A stretch of DNA of 34,742 nt from Oscillospiraceae bacterium. Lineage in GTDB: Bacteria > Bacillota > Clostridia > Oscillospirales > Oscillospiraceae. Positions 9,164 through 12,459 of this stretch are shown here, one piece after another (the first letter of the stretch is position 1; each line of letters opens with the position of its first letter). The notes beneath the pieces were generated by a model that worked only from the letters and a program-made list of their open reading frames with translations, made no database searches and had not been told where the DNA came from. Position numbers and translations under genes: made by a program. The stretch lies in assembly GCA_902761055.1 (NCBI GenBank), contig CACWIS010000014.1:1-34742 (forward strand), written 5' to 3'.

Positions 9164-9255
9164 GGAGATGTCGCGTAGTTGGTCGAGCGCGCACGATTGG
9201 AAATCGTGTAAGGGTCAAAAGCTCTTCGAGAGTTCGAATCTCTCCATCTCCGCCA
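9164..9255 (+). tRNA. tRNA-Ser (anticodon GGA)
   Basis: 92 nt with encoded CCA. The acceptor stem is GGAGATG/CATCTCC with discriminator G and CCA at 9253-9255. The anticodon stem CACGA/TCGTG encloses loop TTGGAAA, with anticodon GGA at 9199-9201 reading UCC/UCU. A long class II variable arm lies between 9210 and 9226 (AGGGT/GCTCT pairing with G-U), and the T-arm is GAGAG-TTCGAAT-CTCTC. It has its own promoter. Its last 71 nt recur exactly at 10128-10198, so its present 3' half is probably the copy brought by an integrated element. Confidence 0.96.
9185..9255 (+). repeat. attL-like direct repeat (3' part of tRNA-Ser)
   Basis: 71 bp identical to 10128-10198. The left flank is GGTC (tRNA D-arm). 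It contains the symmetric anticodon stem-loop CACGATT..AATCGTG, a typical tyrosine-recombinase crossover region. Confidence 0.9.
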
Positions 9256-9259
9256 CGCA

Positions 9260-9299
9260 AAAAGCCTTGTACCGCAATTGGTACAGGGCTTTTCTTTAT
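9260..9299 (+). terminator. Terminator after tRNA-Ser
   Basis: 14-bp stem AAAAGCCTTGTACC/GGTACAGGGCTTTT (one G-T pair) with loop GCAATT, followed by a T-rich tail. It starts 5 nt after the CCA. By the integration model this terminator came with the element. Confidence 0.88.
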
Positions 9300-9304
9300 T
9301 TTCC

Positions 9305-9334
9305 TTGACAAGCATTATAAAAATCGTGTATAGT
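9305..9334 (+). promoter_or_regulatory. Promoter of the island cargo gene
   Basis: TTGACA (9305-9310), 18-nt spacer and TATAGT (9329-9334). It overlaps an AATCGTGT motif (9322-9329). It would give a leader of about 110 nt before the ORF at 9454. A possible 16-codon leader peptide starts with ATG at 9420 and ends at 9470 inside the cargo gene start. Confidence 0.7.
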
Positions 9335-9453
9335 TTTTTTATAATAAATCATGTAATGCCTTTTTTGATATTAATCGTGTCATTTTCAGCGGAATAATAA
9401 GGAAAGAGAGTGTCTAAAGATGGCAGAAAACAAGATAAACGAGCGGAGTTTCT

Positions 9454-9987
9454 ATGGAAGAATATACTGATCTAATTGCTTGGTTTATTAGTGCTTTAAT
9501 ATGTGGTGCGATATCTAAATCAATTTCAAACAAAAGAGGTCTATCTGGTGGTTTTGGTTGGGGTTTCTTTTTATTAGTCATTGGCATAATTATTGTTGCC
9601 TTACTTCCTGTAGATGAAAAAAGAAAAGAAGAATATCTCGACAATACAAGACATATTTATTTCTGCCCTCAATGCTTTTCAACATATAGCGGTACTTCGA
9701 ACGCTAATAATGGTACTTGCCCAAATTGCAAAAGTGCATTATCAGAAACAACAATCCTTTTAGATACATGGCAAACCTTTTCTGACGAAAAGAAAGGGCA
9801 AATGAAGCAAGCATTTGCTGAAGGACAGTACTTAAGATATCCAACAACTAATACCAAAATTAATAACGCAACTAATCAAGTTGTTGGTGGTGCGGAAGAG
9901 ATAAAAAAATACAAAGAACTATTAGATGAAGGCATTATCACTCAAGAAGAATTTGAAGCAAAGAAGAAGCAATTGTTAGGGTTATAA
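9454..9987 (+). CDS. Island cargo: two-TM, zinc-ribbon, SHOCT-domain protein
   Basis: 177 residues. Two hydrophobic helices lie at about 6-23 and 33-52, separated by a short loop. A zinc ribbon follows (CPQC near 71-74, CPNC near 90-93). A linker leads to a C-terminal SHOCT-type segment (residues about 147-177, IKKYKELLDEGIITQEEFEAKK), a short helical module usually at protein ends that is thought to mediate oligomerisation. GGAG lies 5 nt before the ATG. AT-rich codon use unlike the chromosome around it supports transfer. It is the only gene of the mini-element. No enzymatic motif is visible and the function is unknown; a membrane-anchored sensor or scaffold is a guess. Confidence 0.85.
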   Translation: MEEYTDLIAWFISALICGAISKSISNKRGLSGGFGWGFFLLVIGIIIVALLPVDEKRKEEYLDNTRHIYFCPQCFSTYSGTSNANNGTCPNCKSALSETTILLDTWQTFSDEKKGQMKQAFAEGQYLRYPTTNTKINNATNQVVGGAEEIKKYKELLDEGIITQEEFEAKKKQLLGL

Positions 9988-10006
9988 AAGGACGTCACGT
10001 CAAAAT

Positions 10007-10035
10007 TTGCTTTTTATCAAAAAATCGTGTATACT
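10007..10035 (+). promoter_or_regulatory. Promoter-like site facing the orphan tRNA-Ser fragment
   Basis: TTGCTT (10007-10012), 17-nt spacer and TATACT (10030-10035; TATAAT also at 10035-10040), overlapping AATCGTGT at 10023. The surrounding 45 nt resemble those around the promoter at 9305-9334. No ORF follows before the tRNA fragment, so any transcript would be non-coding. Confidence 0.5.
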
Positions 10036-10087
10036 ATAATTGAAAATAAATCGTATACTGCCTTCTGTTTCTTCGCTCAAGAAAATC

Positions 10088-10128
10088 CTTTAAACCATTG
10101 TTGCGCAATGCTTTGAGCATTTTTAAAG
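10088..10128 (+). repeat. Inverted repeat abutting the right att copy
   Basis: Outer arms CTTTAAA/TTTAAAG (10088-10094 and 10122-10128) enclose a small hairpin CATTG-TTGCG-CAATG (10096-10110). The right arm touches the first base of the repeat, so it could be a recombinase or accessory-factor site. Confidence 0.4.
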
Positions 10129-10198
10129 AGCGCGCACGATTGGAAATCGTGTAAGGGTCAAAAGCTCTTCGAGAGTTCGAATCTCTCCATCTCCGCCA
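10128..10198 (+). repeat. attR-like direct repeat: orphan 3' fragment of tRNA-Ser
   Basis: Exact copy of 9185-9255, but the upstream sequence does not supply the acceptor 5' strand or D-arm. It is therefore not a working tRNA. The following hairpin at 10202 is probably the original chromosomal terminator of the tRNA. The 494-nt non-coding stretch 9988-10481 also holds the promoter-like site at 10007, the hairpins at 10202 and 10311, and the arsR promoter. Confidence 0.9.
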
Positions 10199-10201
10199 GA
10201 A

Positions 10202-10241
10202 TAGGATTGCTATTTTAACAAGATAGCAATCCTACTTTTTT
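10202..10241 (+). terminator. Terminator after the orphan tRNA-Ser fragment
   Basis: 12-bp stem TAGGATTGCTAT/ATAGCAATCCTA with a 9-nt loop, then C and T6. It begins 4 nt after the CCA, where a tRNA terminator is expected. Confidence 0.85.
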
Positions 10242-10310
10242 GCCCAAAAGTGCCTTGAAATCCTTGCAATATAGCTATTCTTGGCACTTTTCCGCTATAA
10301 GATTAAAAAG

Positions 10311-10345
10311 GAATCCTGAACCGGGTATTTCTCGGTTCAGGATTC
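10311..10345. terminator. Stem-loop upstream of arsR
   Basis: Perfect 13-bp stem GAATCCTGAACCG/CGGTTCAGGATTC with a 9-nt loop. A T5 tract follows only when read on the minus strand (10306-10310), so it would terminate leftward transcription. No leftward gene is present to the right, so it may insulate the island. Confidence 0.55.
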
Positions 10346-10425
10346 TTGCTATTATGGGTTATTCGCTATGAATTTTGCGTAAGAAATAATGATTACTCTT
10401 GACGTAAATGTTTTATATTGACATA

Positions 10426-10454
10426 TTGACATTCATCTATGTATATGATAATAT
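10426..10454 (+). promoter_or_regulatory. Promoter/operator of arsR
   Basis: Two TTGACA boxes (10418-10423 and 10426-10431). The second pairs with TAATAT (10449-10454) at 17 nt. The AT-rich dyad-like stretch ATTCATCTATGTAT between them may be an ArsR site. GGAGGTGA precedes the gene start. Confidence 0.5.
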
Positions 10455-10481
10455 ATGTTCAATCCATGGAGGTGACCGGCT

Positions 10482-10799
10482 ATGGGATTTAGGGAAGACG
10501 TTAGGAAGATCAAGGCGCTTGCAGATGAAAATCGTCTAGCAATCATGCTCTCTCTGCAACATGGAGAGAAATGTGGTTGTGTTCTGCTTGAAGAACTGAA
10601 TATCACTCAGCCCACGCTGTCCCATCACATGAAAATCCTCTGTGACAGTAATCTGGTCAATGCAAGGAAGGAAGGAAAATGGATGCATTATTCCCTTTCT
10701 AAAAAAGGCCTTTCCGCTTTTCGCGATATGATTGGGATTTATGTCCGCTGTGATTGCGAGAACGGCGATAATGATACTGGATCCTGCTGCTGTGGATAA
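10482..10799 (+). CDS. ArsR/SmtB-family metalloregulator
   Basis: 105 residues, winged HTH with recognition helix ITQPTLSHHMKIL (41-53). Cys31-Gly-Cys33 lies at the start of the preceding helix, where As(III)-sensing ArsR proteins carry their CxC ligands. More cysteines lie at 54, 90, 92 and 102-104 (C-terminal CCCG). Such repressors leave DNA on binding As(III), Sb(III) or soft metals. It is followed by a permease and a thioredoxin-like protein, so it very likely controls the cluster. GGAGGTGA lies 7 nt before the ATG. GC content is lower than in the flanking chromosome. Confidence 0.93.
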   Translation: MGFREDVRKIKALADENRLAIMLSLQHGEKCGCVLLEELNITQPTLSHHMKILCDSNLVNARKEGKWMHYSLSKKGLSAFRDMIGIYVRCDCENGDNDTGSCCCG

Positions 10800-10824
10800 G
10801 CATCAAACCACATAGTATTAAAAC

Positions 10825-10849
10825 AGGCAGTCCGTTTTAGACTGCCTTT
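10825..10849 (+). terminator. Hairpin between arsR and the permease gene (possible attenuator)
   Basis: 8-bp stem AGGCAGTC/GACTGCCT with a 7-nt loop, then TTTAT. The weak T-run suggests partial termination, which would favour arsR over the permease unless read through. Confidence 0.6.
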
Positions 10850-10865
10850 ATAAAGCCAACATACA

Positions 10866-10887
10866 TCGATACATTTGAATGTATCGA
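10866..10887. promoter_or_regulatory. Palindromic operator in front of the permease gene
   Basis: Perfect 10-bp inverted repeat TCGATACATT/AATGTATCGA separated by TG, 18 nt before the permease ATG. Size and symmetry suit a dimeric winged-HTH repressor such as the adjacent ArsR. The binding assignment is inferred. Confidence 0.6.
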
Positions 10888-10905
10888 ACTTTAGGGAGTA
10901 TAATT

Positions 10906-11904
10906 ATGGGTGCTTTTTTTCAAAATCAGATACTCGGTATGAAATGGCTTAATGAACTGGTTGGCAACCTGCTTTCCGCTATGGGGCTGGATACGACTTC
11001 GCGGATTGGCGGGAGTGTACAGTTTTTCATATATGACGTGATCAAGATCACGATCCTGCTTTGCCTGCTGATTTTTATCATCTCATATATCCAGAGCTTT
11101 TTCCCGCCGGAGCGAAGTCGGAAGATTATGGGACGATTCCACGGCATCGGAGCAAATATTGTGGGGGCGCTTCTAGGCACGGTGACGCCGTTCTGCTCCT
11201 GTTCGTCTATTCCCATCTTTATGGGCTTTACAAGCGCGGGTTTGCCGCTGGGTGTGACCTTCTCCTTCCTGATTTCTTCTCCGATGGTAGATCTCGGAAG
11301 CCTTGTTCTGCTGATGAGCATATTTGGAGTAAAGATTGCCATTGCTTACGTGATCCTCGGCCTGGTCATCGCAGTCATCGGCGGGACGCTGATTGAAAAG
11401 CTACACATGGAAGACCAGATCGCAGACTTCATCCGCAACAGCAACAGCAGCGTGAATATCGAATCGCCCGATCTGACGGTCCATGACCGATTGGTTTATG
11501 CAAGGGATCAGGTCGAGTCCACCTTCAAAAAAGTGTTCCCCTATATTCTGGTAGGTGTAGGCATCGGGGCAATTATCCACAACTGGATACCGGAGAACTG
11601 GGTACAGACCGTTCTCGGCAGCAGGAATCCGTTCAGCGTTGTCCTTGCGACAATCGTGGGTGTGCCGATGTATGCCGATATCTTCGGAACGATCCCCGTG
11701 GCGGAGGCGGTGCTGGCAAAAGGCGCCCTTCTCGGCACGATACTCAGTTTCATGATGGCGGTCACCACGCTGAGCCTGCCTTCACTGATCATGCTGAAAA
11801 AAGCAATTAAGCCGAAACTCATGGGAACCTTTATCGTCATTTGTGTCATTAGTATCATTATCATCGGGTATGGCTTTAACGCCTTCCAATATATCTTTAT
11901 CTGA
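10906..11904 (+). CDS. ArsP/UPF0718-family permease
   Basis: 332 residues, about eight to ten TM helices. The conserved GTVTPFCSCSSIPIFMGF motif places the CSC triad at residues 97-99, characteristic of the ArsP_1 (DUF318/YraQ) permease family, whose characterised members export organoarsenicals or soft metals. A soluble loop of about 40 residues follows near 180-220. An upstream in-frame ATG at 10879 lies inside the operator palindrome. The ATG at 10906 has AGGGAG at 7 nt and is preferred. Co-directional with arsR and with the thioredoxin-like gene 14 nt downstream. The real substrate is unproven. Confidence 0.9.
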   Translation: MGAFFQNQILGMKWLNELVGNLLSAMGLDTTSRIGGSVQFFIYDVIKITILLCLLIFIISYIQSFFPPERSRKIMGRFHGIGANIVGALLGTVTPFCSCSSIPIFMGFTSAGLPLGVTFSFLISSPMVDLGSLVLLMSIFGVKIAIAYVILGLVIAVIGGTLIEKLHMEDQIADFIRNSNSSVNIESPDLTVHDRLVYARDQVESTFKKVFPYILVGVGIGAIIHNWIPENWVQTVLGSRNPFSVVLATIVGVPMYADIFGTIPVAEAVLAKGALLGTILSFMMAVTTLSLPSLIMLKKAIKPKLMGTFIVICVISIIIIGYGFNAFQYIFI

Positions 11905-11918
11905 CAGGAGGATACAAA

Positions 11919-12146
11919 ATGAATATCAAAGTTTTGGGTGGCGGATGCTGCAAATGTGAAAATCTGCTCGGTGCGGTCAAGGAAGCCGTAGCCGAAAAAG
12001 GGATCGTGGCAGAAATTGAGTACATCACCGACATGACTAAGATTATGGAGTACGGTATTATGAGTACGCCGGCGCTGATAATTGATAACAAGGTCGTTTC
12101 TATGGGCCGCGTTCTCAAAGCAAAGGACGTTGCAAAACTGCTGTAA
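11919..12146 (+). CDS. Redox-active thioredoxin-like protein with CCKC motif
   Basis: 75 residues, single thioredoxin-fold domain of the small redox-active disulfide protein type. GGGCCKCENL places Cys10, Cys11 and Cys13 at the active turn. STPALIIDNKVV at about residues 48-59 carries the conserved cis-proline. Such proteins are regularly coupled to ArsP-family permeases and may reduce, carry or hand over thiol-bound metal(loid)s; that role is inferred from context. AGGAGG lies 7 nt before the ATG. It ends the operon before a strong terminator. Confidence 0.92.
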   Translation: MNIKVLGGGCCKCENLLGAVKEAVAEKGIVAEIEYITDMTKIMEYGIMSTPALIIDNKVVSMGRVLKAKDVAKLL

Positions 12147-12204
12147 TGAAAAGAAATAATTATTGATTGAAGCTTCTTTGTAAAAATAGCAATCTTTTGC
12201 CATG

Positions 12205-12247: not shown

Positions 12248-12257
12248 TATAAAGCGT

Positions 12258-12374
12258 GGAGAGATTCGAACAGGGCGCGAGCGAAGCGAGAGAAACATGC
12301 CGGGGGCATGTTTCTCTTGCCCGCGTGCGTGCCGGAGCGGCGCCCGCGCCCGGCGAAGCTCTCCGTCTCCGCCA
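12258..12374 (+). repeat. GC-rich structured block with tRNA-Ser-like ends
   Basis: Starts GGAGAGATTCGAACA, the reverse complement of a tRNA T-arm, and ends CTCTCCGTCTCCGCCA. The end differs by one base from the last 16 nt of tRNA-Ser (9240-9255). The ends can pair (GGAGAG 12258-12263 with CTCTCC 12359-12364). Inside is a perfect 13-bp hairpin (12289-12301 with 12305-12317, loop GGG). It lacks an anticodon arm or D-arm and is not a tRNA. It lies in the 412-nt gene-free stretch 12147-12558, which otherwise holds only the terminator at 12205 and the promoter at 12460. It is either a third island boundary or a mobile palindromic repeat that mimics tRNA ends. Confidence 0.6.
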
Positions 12375-12459
12375 TGAAAACAGTTCCCGGCCGGATTGCC
12401 GCGTGTCGGTATTTATGCTATGATGAACGCATCGGCGCGTGCCCGGGCGCTCGTTTTCC

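What the first reader, a model, noticed from the sequence alone, without database searches (positions are those of the whole stretch)
9185..10198. 943-bp single-gene element bounded by 71-bp tRNA-Ser repeats and lacking a recombinase
The last 71 bp of tRNA-Ser(GGA) recur without a mismatch 943 bp downstream. The DNA between is AT-rich and carries one gene. tRNA integration by recombinases is established; a unit this small with intact att copies and a single membrane/zinc-ribbon/SHOCT cargo suggests a non-autonomous passenger moved in trans, comparable to a satellite or integrative MITE.
Basis: partly seen in the sequence, partly recalled or inferred. Interest (0 to 1): 0.75.

Follow-up and report, generated by a model that had tools for sequence, protein, structure and literature searches.

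The report
Integrase-less single-gene passenger at tRNA-Ser
A tiny 943-base stretch of foreign DNA carrying one gene sits behind a serine tRNA gene with what look like all the docking sites of a larger tRNA-inserting element but without the enzyme that moves it, so it looks like a stripped-down passenger, and it is the outermost layer of a stack of inserts there.

Summary
In detail: 71/71-bp copies at 9185-9255 and 10128-10198, one AT-rich gene between them, no recombinase. The element is best read as an integrase-less derivative of a tRNA-targeting tyrosine-integrase family of the same genus. Congener G067 carries a 4,739-bp relative, with integrase, at its tRNA-Ser(GGA). Both have three AATCGTGT-type sites at the left end (steps 25 and 26 bp) and a right site 96 bp before the core; the cargo gene begins about where the integrase does. 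In nine congeneric loci with such integrases, left-end repeats copy the anticodon stem of the element's own tRNA (Pro, Lys, Thr, Leu, Ser). None of 101 other genomes of the genus gave the whole segment. Movement in trans is inferred, not shown; no integrase of this family was found in the own, 81%-complete assembly. The element tops a stack: an arsenic-type operon, then (12257-12374) a structured element of a family, not found in Rfam, whose outer stem and tail copy the 3' end of the neighbouring tRNA. That family may be the more novel find.

The parts
9164..9255 (+). tRNA-Ser(GGA) gene, the insertion target; its 3' 71 bp (9185-9255) form the left copy
   Evidence: ARAGORN; repeat
9192..9208 (+). 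presumed recombination core: CACGATT-GGA-AATCGTG, the anticodon stem-loop (second copy 10135-10151)
   Evidence: lies in the part shared by the 65-71-bp copies of the window, L061 and L062. Core role inferred
9260..9293 (+). terminator-like hairpin apparently brought by the element, now behind the tRNA
   Evidence: like the hairpin just after tRNA-Thr(GGT) in L136/L137: 95% over 37 bp read in the opposite orientation, 86% in the same one
9305..9334 (+). promoter-like TTGACA-18-TATAGT (11 of 12) overlapping the first left repeat site
   Evidence: 7 such sites in the region against 6.9 in shuffles, so weak evidence
9322..9381 (+). left arm-like sites at 9322, 9347, 9373 (AATCGTGTA, AATCATGTA, AATCGTGTC)
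   Evidence: same 25/26-bp steps as L061; none of 2000 first-order Markov resamplings reaches the count of 5 in the element
9420..9470 (+). 16-codon ORF whose ATG lies 47 bp after the third site, as the integrase start codon does in L061; possible remnant
   Evidence: weak
9454..9987 (+). cargo gene, 177 aa: hydrophobic N-terminus, CxxC...CxxC zinc-ribbon-like middle (my reading), C-terminal SHOCT
   Evidence: residues 8-114 to phrog_8436 (E 2.8e-5), C-terminus to phrog_888 (E 9.2e-18), both of unknown function
10023..10057 (+). right arm-like sites at 10023 and 10049; 10049 is 96 bp before the core motif at 10145
   Evidence: L061 has 4590 and core 4686, also 96 bp
10128..10198 (+). displaced 71-bp 3' end of tRNA-Ser, right copy
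10202..10234 (+). hairpin that follows tRNA-Ser directly in congeners G102, G085 and G077
10482..12146 (+). neighbouring insert: ArsR-type regulator, ArsP_1 permease, MTH895/ArsE-type thioredoxin
   Evidence: stretch 10178-12160 is 94% identical to part of G017:C141
12205..12248 (.). inverted repeat with A-run and T-run (terminator-like) just before the structured element
   Evidence: minus-strand terminator-like calls at 12234-12217 and 12230-12215
12257..12374 (+). structured element with outer stem and tail resembling the tRNA-Ser 3' end
   Evidence: model R1 30.4 bits, E 8e-7; fold z -6.25 for 12250-12380

Best explanation
The 943-bp segment is an integrase-less (CIME-like) derivative of a tRNA-integrating element of the G067/L061 family. 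A tyrosine integrase presumably recombined the anticodon-stem core of an element circle with tRNA-Ser(GGA). The element's own 71-bp tRNA end restored the gene, its own hairpin now stands behind the tRNA, and the original 3' end was displaced to 10128-10198. Shown: duplicated tRNA end, repeat sites at both ends at the spacing of the integrase-bearing relative, no integrase, no full-length match in the rest of the genus. Inferred: the repeats are integrase arm sites; the integrase gene was lost and the cargo gene took its place near its start codon; the retained promoter drives the cargo; the unit could still be cut out by an integrase supplied in trans.
For: 71/71-bp repeat. Relative in G067 at tRNA-Ser(GGA): 4,739 bp, identical 65-bp tRNA end at its far side, Phage_integrase gene next to the tRNA. 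In the genus search the left site region matches only G067 (83% over 64 bp, E 5.4e-10); the right end also matches G067's left end (79% over 61 columns). Spacing: left steps 25/26 in both, right site to core 96 in both; five inner sites against 0.18 expected. Family rule: 9 of 9 integrase loci have at least two near-copies of one strand of their own tRNA's anticodon stem where 0.2 or fewer are expected (better of two motifs tried); own motifs 3.0 per end against 0.4 for other tRNAs' motifs over 10 ends including the window. Empty configuration in G102, G085, G077. G017 has the DNA right of the element at 94% identity without the element.
Against: No excision was observed and no integrase of this family was found in the own assembly; the nearest is a 310-aa tyrosine recombinase at 26-31% identity, but the assembly is 81% complete. 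Only one such unit was found, so repeated movement is not demonstrated. The tRNA core to first left site distance differs (120 bp here, 130 in L061). In six of the seven further integrase loci no second tRNA copy was detected in the stretch fetched, so their boundaries are unknown. The empty-site genomes are other species and resemble the window only for about 60-150 bp beyond the tRNA. The integrase remnant is at most 16 codons.
Confidence: 0.78

Rival explanations
1. Dead remnant: an integrase-bearing element inserted, lost its integrase by internal deletion in this lineage, and the remainder is stable and no longer moves.
For: No matching integrase in the own assembly; single copy in the own genome and no full-length match in 101 other genomes of the genus.
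Against: 71-bp copies without a mismatch and repeat sites at native spacing at both ends indicate recent insertion or maintenance; neither integrase-bearing element at tRNA-Ser showed a cargo relative (by inspection and DNA comparison).
Confidence: 0.4
2. Local tandem duplication of the tRNA 3' end around a gene native to the genus.
For: Only the repeat itself would need explaining.
Against: Cargo N-terminus matched in 1 of 391 class genomes, the own; interior DNA matched in full in 1 of 102 genomes of the genus, the own, others only in fragments; end sites match an integrase-bearing element; GC differs from the flank.
Confidence: 0.03
3. Assembly chimera joined at the 71-bp repeat of a draft contig.
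For: No reads available; repeats at this site interrupt other assemblies (G017: runs of N and a contig that starts at a structured element).
Against: Both ends carry matching site sets of one element; the right-hand DNA recurs in G017 next to a tRNA-Ser-derived 21-mer; the start of a SpoVA-type gene lies upstream of this tRNA also in L292 (read).
Confidence: 0.04
4. Insertion by another integrase type that uses this tRNA, as in the phage-collection contig L292, where only a 23-bp copy is left.
For: Such an element exists at the same tRNA.
Against: The copy here is 71 bp and includes the anticodon stem, and the end sites match the L061 type.
Confidence: 0.03

Closest known systems
CIME (cis-mobilizable element); definition read in passages of PMC5704250
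   Same: No integration or transfer genes, both att ends retained, sits in a stack of inserts at one gene end.
   Different: CIMEs as described there arise by decay of ICEs or IMEs and were seen to transfer in tandem with an ICE; this one is 943 bp with one gene, and in its integrase-bearing relatives no conjugation gene was recognised.
Tycheposons; passages of PMC10872708 and one of PMC11389934; original paper not read
   Same: Cargo DNA at a tRNA gene, associated with a tyrosine recombinase.
   Different: Given in PMC10872708 as 4-200 kbp with a tyrosine recombinase xerD; no sequence relation was tested.
MITEs and CALIN arrays; passages of PMC11389934
   Same: Unit keeps the recombination sites and depends on an enzyme encoded elsewhere.
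   Different: MITEs use transposases and lack genes; CALINs use attC sites and an integron integrase; here the sites are tRNA-derived and the presumed enzyme is a tRNA-targeting integrase.
G067 element (L061, 4,739 bp) and G015 element (L130, 1,392 bp)
   Same: Same layout: tRNA, hairpin, anticodon-stem repeats, then integrase.
   Different: Both encode the integrase; the G015 unit has it as its only gene by my reading, the window unit has only cargo.
KplE1 intS/attL arrangement; abstract and passages of PMC2951348
   Same: Integrase promoter overlaps the attL integrase-binding sites behind a tRNA end.
   Different: Shown by experiment in E. coli; here only the sequence overlap is seen and the gene behind the promoter is cargo.

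Membership tests
CIME | attL and attR retained | tested here: met
   71-bp copies and end sites; that they are functional is not tested
CIME | integration and transfer genes lost | tested here: met
   only a 177-aa ORF of note; that a transfer module ever existed is not shown
CIME | derived from an ICE or IME | tested here: inconclusive
   relatives L061 and L062 have an integrase and a resolvase-type recombinase; no relaxase or conjugation gene recognised among the seven proteins scanned
CIME | mobilised by accretion with a functional element | not testable with these tools
   needs excision or transfer assays
Anticodon-stem-armed tRNA elements (L061 integrase family, my grouping) | tRNA, then hairpin, then repeats of the own tRNA's anticodon stem | tested here: met
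Anticodon-stem-armed tRNA elements (L061 integrase family, my grouping) | family integrase encoded in the element | tested here: not met
   no Phage_integrase match within 9256-10127; the seven matches of the own genome lie on other contigs
Tycheposon | cargo element at a tRNA gene | tested here: met
Tycheposon | tyrosine recombinase present, 4-200 kbp as given in PMC10872708 | tested here: not met
   943 bp, no recombinase
MITE | terminal inverted repeats and no gene | tested here: not met
   direct tRNA repeats, no inverted repeat pair of 16 bp or more reported within the element, one ORF
Phage satellite | packaging or capsid-interference genes | tested here: not met
   none recognised; single SHOCT ORF

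The most novel reading that the evidence does not exclude
tRNA 3' ends in this genus act as entry ports of a modular cassette system. Small units, each bringing its own tRNA end and terminator, stack behind a tRNA. Some carry only an integrase (G015, 1.4 kb), some only cargo (the window, 943 bp). The structured elements, whose outer stem and tail are re-copied from whichever tRNA they sit behind and whose hairpins covary almost without G-U pairs, are single-strand-folded recombination sites (attC-like) of an unknown recombinase.
Probability: 0.22. Interest if true: 0.9.

Novelty: new variant of a known kind. Interest (0 to 1): 0.6.

Why it matters
It shows how small a tRNA-integrating unit can become while keeping what look like complete att ends, and names a concrete candidate helper type (the G067 integrase) so that trans-mobilisation can be tested directly. 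The rule that end repeats copy the anticodon stem of the element's own tRNA would let one read an element's target, and recognise integrase-less passengers, from sequence alone. The neighbouring tRNA-fitted structured elements, matched in 58 of 102 genomes of the genus and not in Rfam as far as searched, may be a new type of mobile or regulatory DNA.

Tried and rejected
Rejected: local duplication, origin by the L292 integrase type, phage satellite (see rivals and membership). Cargo relatives: none in viral contigs; 16 loci in genome contigs, all matching within residues 89-177; 9 genomes besides the own in a search of relatives, all within residues 117-177; 9 phage records, residues 133-177 only, 18-25% coverage; weak PADLOC DruE matches (best E 1e-4, 18 bits) read as zinc-ribbon noise. 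Helper in the own genome: 7 Phage_integrase hits, none above 31% identity to the L061 or L062 integrase, where only the longest frames of each locus were compared. Plasmid search with the G067 integrase: 595 records, all under 60% identity, none covering 80% of it. Rfam: no match to the structured element at gathering score in three loci nor a credible one in the window. Whether structured-element cores follow tRNA type or genome: mean identities nearly equal (0.77 same genome, 0.75 same tRNA, 0.74 neither), so no clear answer. One short match against the reading: the right-end site region also hits 30 bp (90%, E 5e-4) in G001, where no tRNA lies near, probably chance. Literature searches listed nothing that I recognised as a description of the structured element or of anticodon-stem repeats at element ends; they are narrow, and most hits were seen as listings only. 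The first tRNA-context script had an offset error and printed nothing, redone.

Full report
Observation. The window is the whole of contig 14 of an unnamed 1.89-Mb, 80.7%-complete assembly. The right copy lacks the first 21 bp of the tRNA, so the left one is the complete gene.

Distribution. The interior DNA (872 bp) was searched in 102 genomes of the genus, own included; up to four candidate places per genome were scored. Only the own genome matches in full. Ten others match in short pieces: six in the SHOCT-coding end (G052, G070, G076, G060, G005, G012), G001 in 30 bp of the right end, G080 and G090 in the hairpin (37 bp at 95%), and G067 in the left site region (64 bp, 83%). The N-terminal 130 residues of the cargo match 1 of 391 genomes of the class, the own one. 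tRNA-Ser(GGA) matches were found in 85 of 101 genomes, own included. In that call G067 and G065 have a second copy of 65 nt about 4.7-4.9 kb downstream on the same contig; G080 and G090 have a 67-nt copy on another contig.

Integrase-bearing relatives. G067 (L061) has a 4,739-bp element between tRNA-Ser and an identical 65-bp copy, and G065 (L062) a 4,949-bp one with a diverged copy (92%). Both contain a tyrosine integrase (447 and 354 aa; 38% identical over 351 columns), a resolvase-type serine recombinase and a 109-aa ORF without a Pfam match. The ends of the window element align with those of L061: sites at 9322, 9347 and 9373 against element positions 77, 102 and 128, and a right site 96 bp before the core in each. 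The distance from tRNA core to first left site differs, 120 against 130 bp. The ATG at 9420 lies 47 bp after the third site, as does the integrase start in L061; it opens only 16 codons, so the remnant is a suggestion. The promoter-like TTGACA/TATAGT pair overlaps the first site, an arrangement for which autoregulation of the integrase has been shown in KplE1 (PMC2951348, abstract and passages).

Family rule. Besides G067 and G065, seven integrases matched L061 with E below 1e-36; 55 further genomes gave only weaker matches, about 24-31% identical in the rows listed, and were not used. The seven lie near tRNA-Pro(GGG) twice, Lys(TTT), Thr(GGT) three times and Leu(CAG). In all nine loci the DNA between tRNA and integrase has at least two copies, allowing one mismatch, of one of the two anticodon-stem motifs of that tRNA, against at most 0.2 expected; the other motif often had none. 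Across ten left ends, including the window, own motifs number 30 (3.0 per end) and other tRNAs' motifs 16 in 40 cells (0.4); part of the latter arises because the Ser and Pro motifs resemble each other. L132 and L134 are near copies and L129 and L131 similar, so the independent cases are about five. AATCGTGTA is absent from the whole of L129-L135. In six of these seven loci no second copy of the tRNA end was detected. In the seventh, G015 (L130), the unit is 1,392 bp, has a 49-bp tRNA-Lys repeat and a 306-codon integrase frame as its only gene by my reading (a 75-codon frame and antisense frames were disregarded).

Empty sites. Of the 72 tRNA-Ser placements listed besides the window's two, three (G102/L068, G085/L078, G077/L150) run at once into the hairpin that follows the second copy in the window. 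Similarity to the window beyond the tRNA extends about 150 bp (77%) in G102, 62 bp (90%) in G085 and 43 bp (95%) in G077 (G102 and G085 aligned). In G017 a 21-bp tRNA-Ser end, there the tail of a structured element at a contig edge, is followed by the hairpin and the whole ars-type block at 94% identity over 1,989 columns, without the 943-bp element.

The stack. Right of the element come an ArsR/ArsP_1/thioredoxin module, matched in part by 55 of 102 genomes of the genus, own included, many only in the hairpin, then a terminator-like inverted repeat and a structured element at 12257-12374, after which GC returns to host level. The order, with perfect 71-bp copies nearest the tRNA and two mismatches in the distal 21-mer, fits successive insertion with the 943-bp unit last; this is inference. 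An IMG/VR contig (L292) shows a further insertion, with an unrelated-looking integrase, into the same tRNA, leaving a 23-bp copy and then a structured element.

Structured elements. A model (R1) from 15 tRNA-Ser cases matches 58 of 102 genomes of the genus, own included, up to 18 places in one genome (strict filters, at most 32 candidates scored per genome), but only 5 of 295 genomes in a sample of the order, own included (at most 11 scored). From 102 rows, 86 were kept (2 duplicates and 14 rows under 36 bits dropped). Of these 86, 69 have a same-strand tRNA upstream in the fetched piece, 51 of them at 39-54 bp, from 15 isoacceptors; the other 17 have none in the piece. The tail matches the own tRNA's 3' end at 17.0 of 21 positions on average against 10.4 for other tRNAs, with 41 of 69 at 18 or more; some fit poorly, such as both L238 elements (12, 13), the second of L233 (12) and of L199 (11). 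Base pairing holds in 96.7% of 3,082 cells against 35-48% for slid versions; the covariation score is 0.572 against 0.164 in shuffles; 28 of 39 pairs change on both sides, not far above the shuffled mean of 24.4 (that alignment was fitted to the model). G-U cells outside one pair number 31 of about 3,003 (my count); I recall RNA helices as richer in G-U, so selection at the DNA level is a possibility, not a result. Cores up to 92% alike occur behind different tRNAs (53 of the 69 plus 12 tRNA-Ser cases). There is no Rfam match. What these elements do is open.

Mechanism and limits. The best reading is an integrase-less passenger or remnant of the anticodon-stem integrase family. Integration by such an enzyme is well supported by anatomy; mobility in trans is a hypothesis with a named candidate helper type. 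The cargo's role is unknown; a phage-related membrane or immunity function is a guess from its PHROG and SHOCT matches.

Noticed in passing
window 12257-12374; L219-L278 and others: Family of three-hairpin structured elements behind many different tRNA genes; outer stem is an inverted copy and the tail a direct copy of that tRNA's 3' end; in 58 of 102 genomes of the genus, no Rfam match.
   Followed up: partly
window 10199-12202; G017:C141 (L306): ArsR/ArsP_1/thioredoxin block that recurs at 94% identity in G017, in both cases directly behind a tRNA-Ser 3' end copy.
   Followed up: partly
L130 (G015), tRNA-Lys: 1,392-bp unit with an integrase as its only gene by my reading, 49-bp tRNA repeat, followed by a sequence that looks like a structured element.
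   Followed up: partly
L292 (IMGVR_UViG_3300028048_002747): Viral-collection contig with a different integrase inserted in the same tRNA-Ser(GGA), 23-bp right copy, then terminator-like hairpin and the start of a structured element.
   Followed up: partly
L309 (G022) behind tRNA-Ser(CGA); L318 (G000:C4) behind a tRNA-like 3' end: The hairpin that follows the window's second copy also follows other tRNAs, in G022 with about 196 bp of leader at 86%.
   Followed up: no
L067 2192-2660 (G070): Another small unit behind tRNA-Ser(GGA) with one lipoprotein-like gene, closed by a structured element.
   Followed up: no
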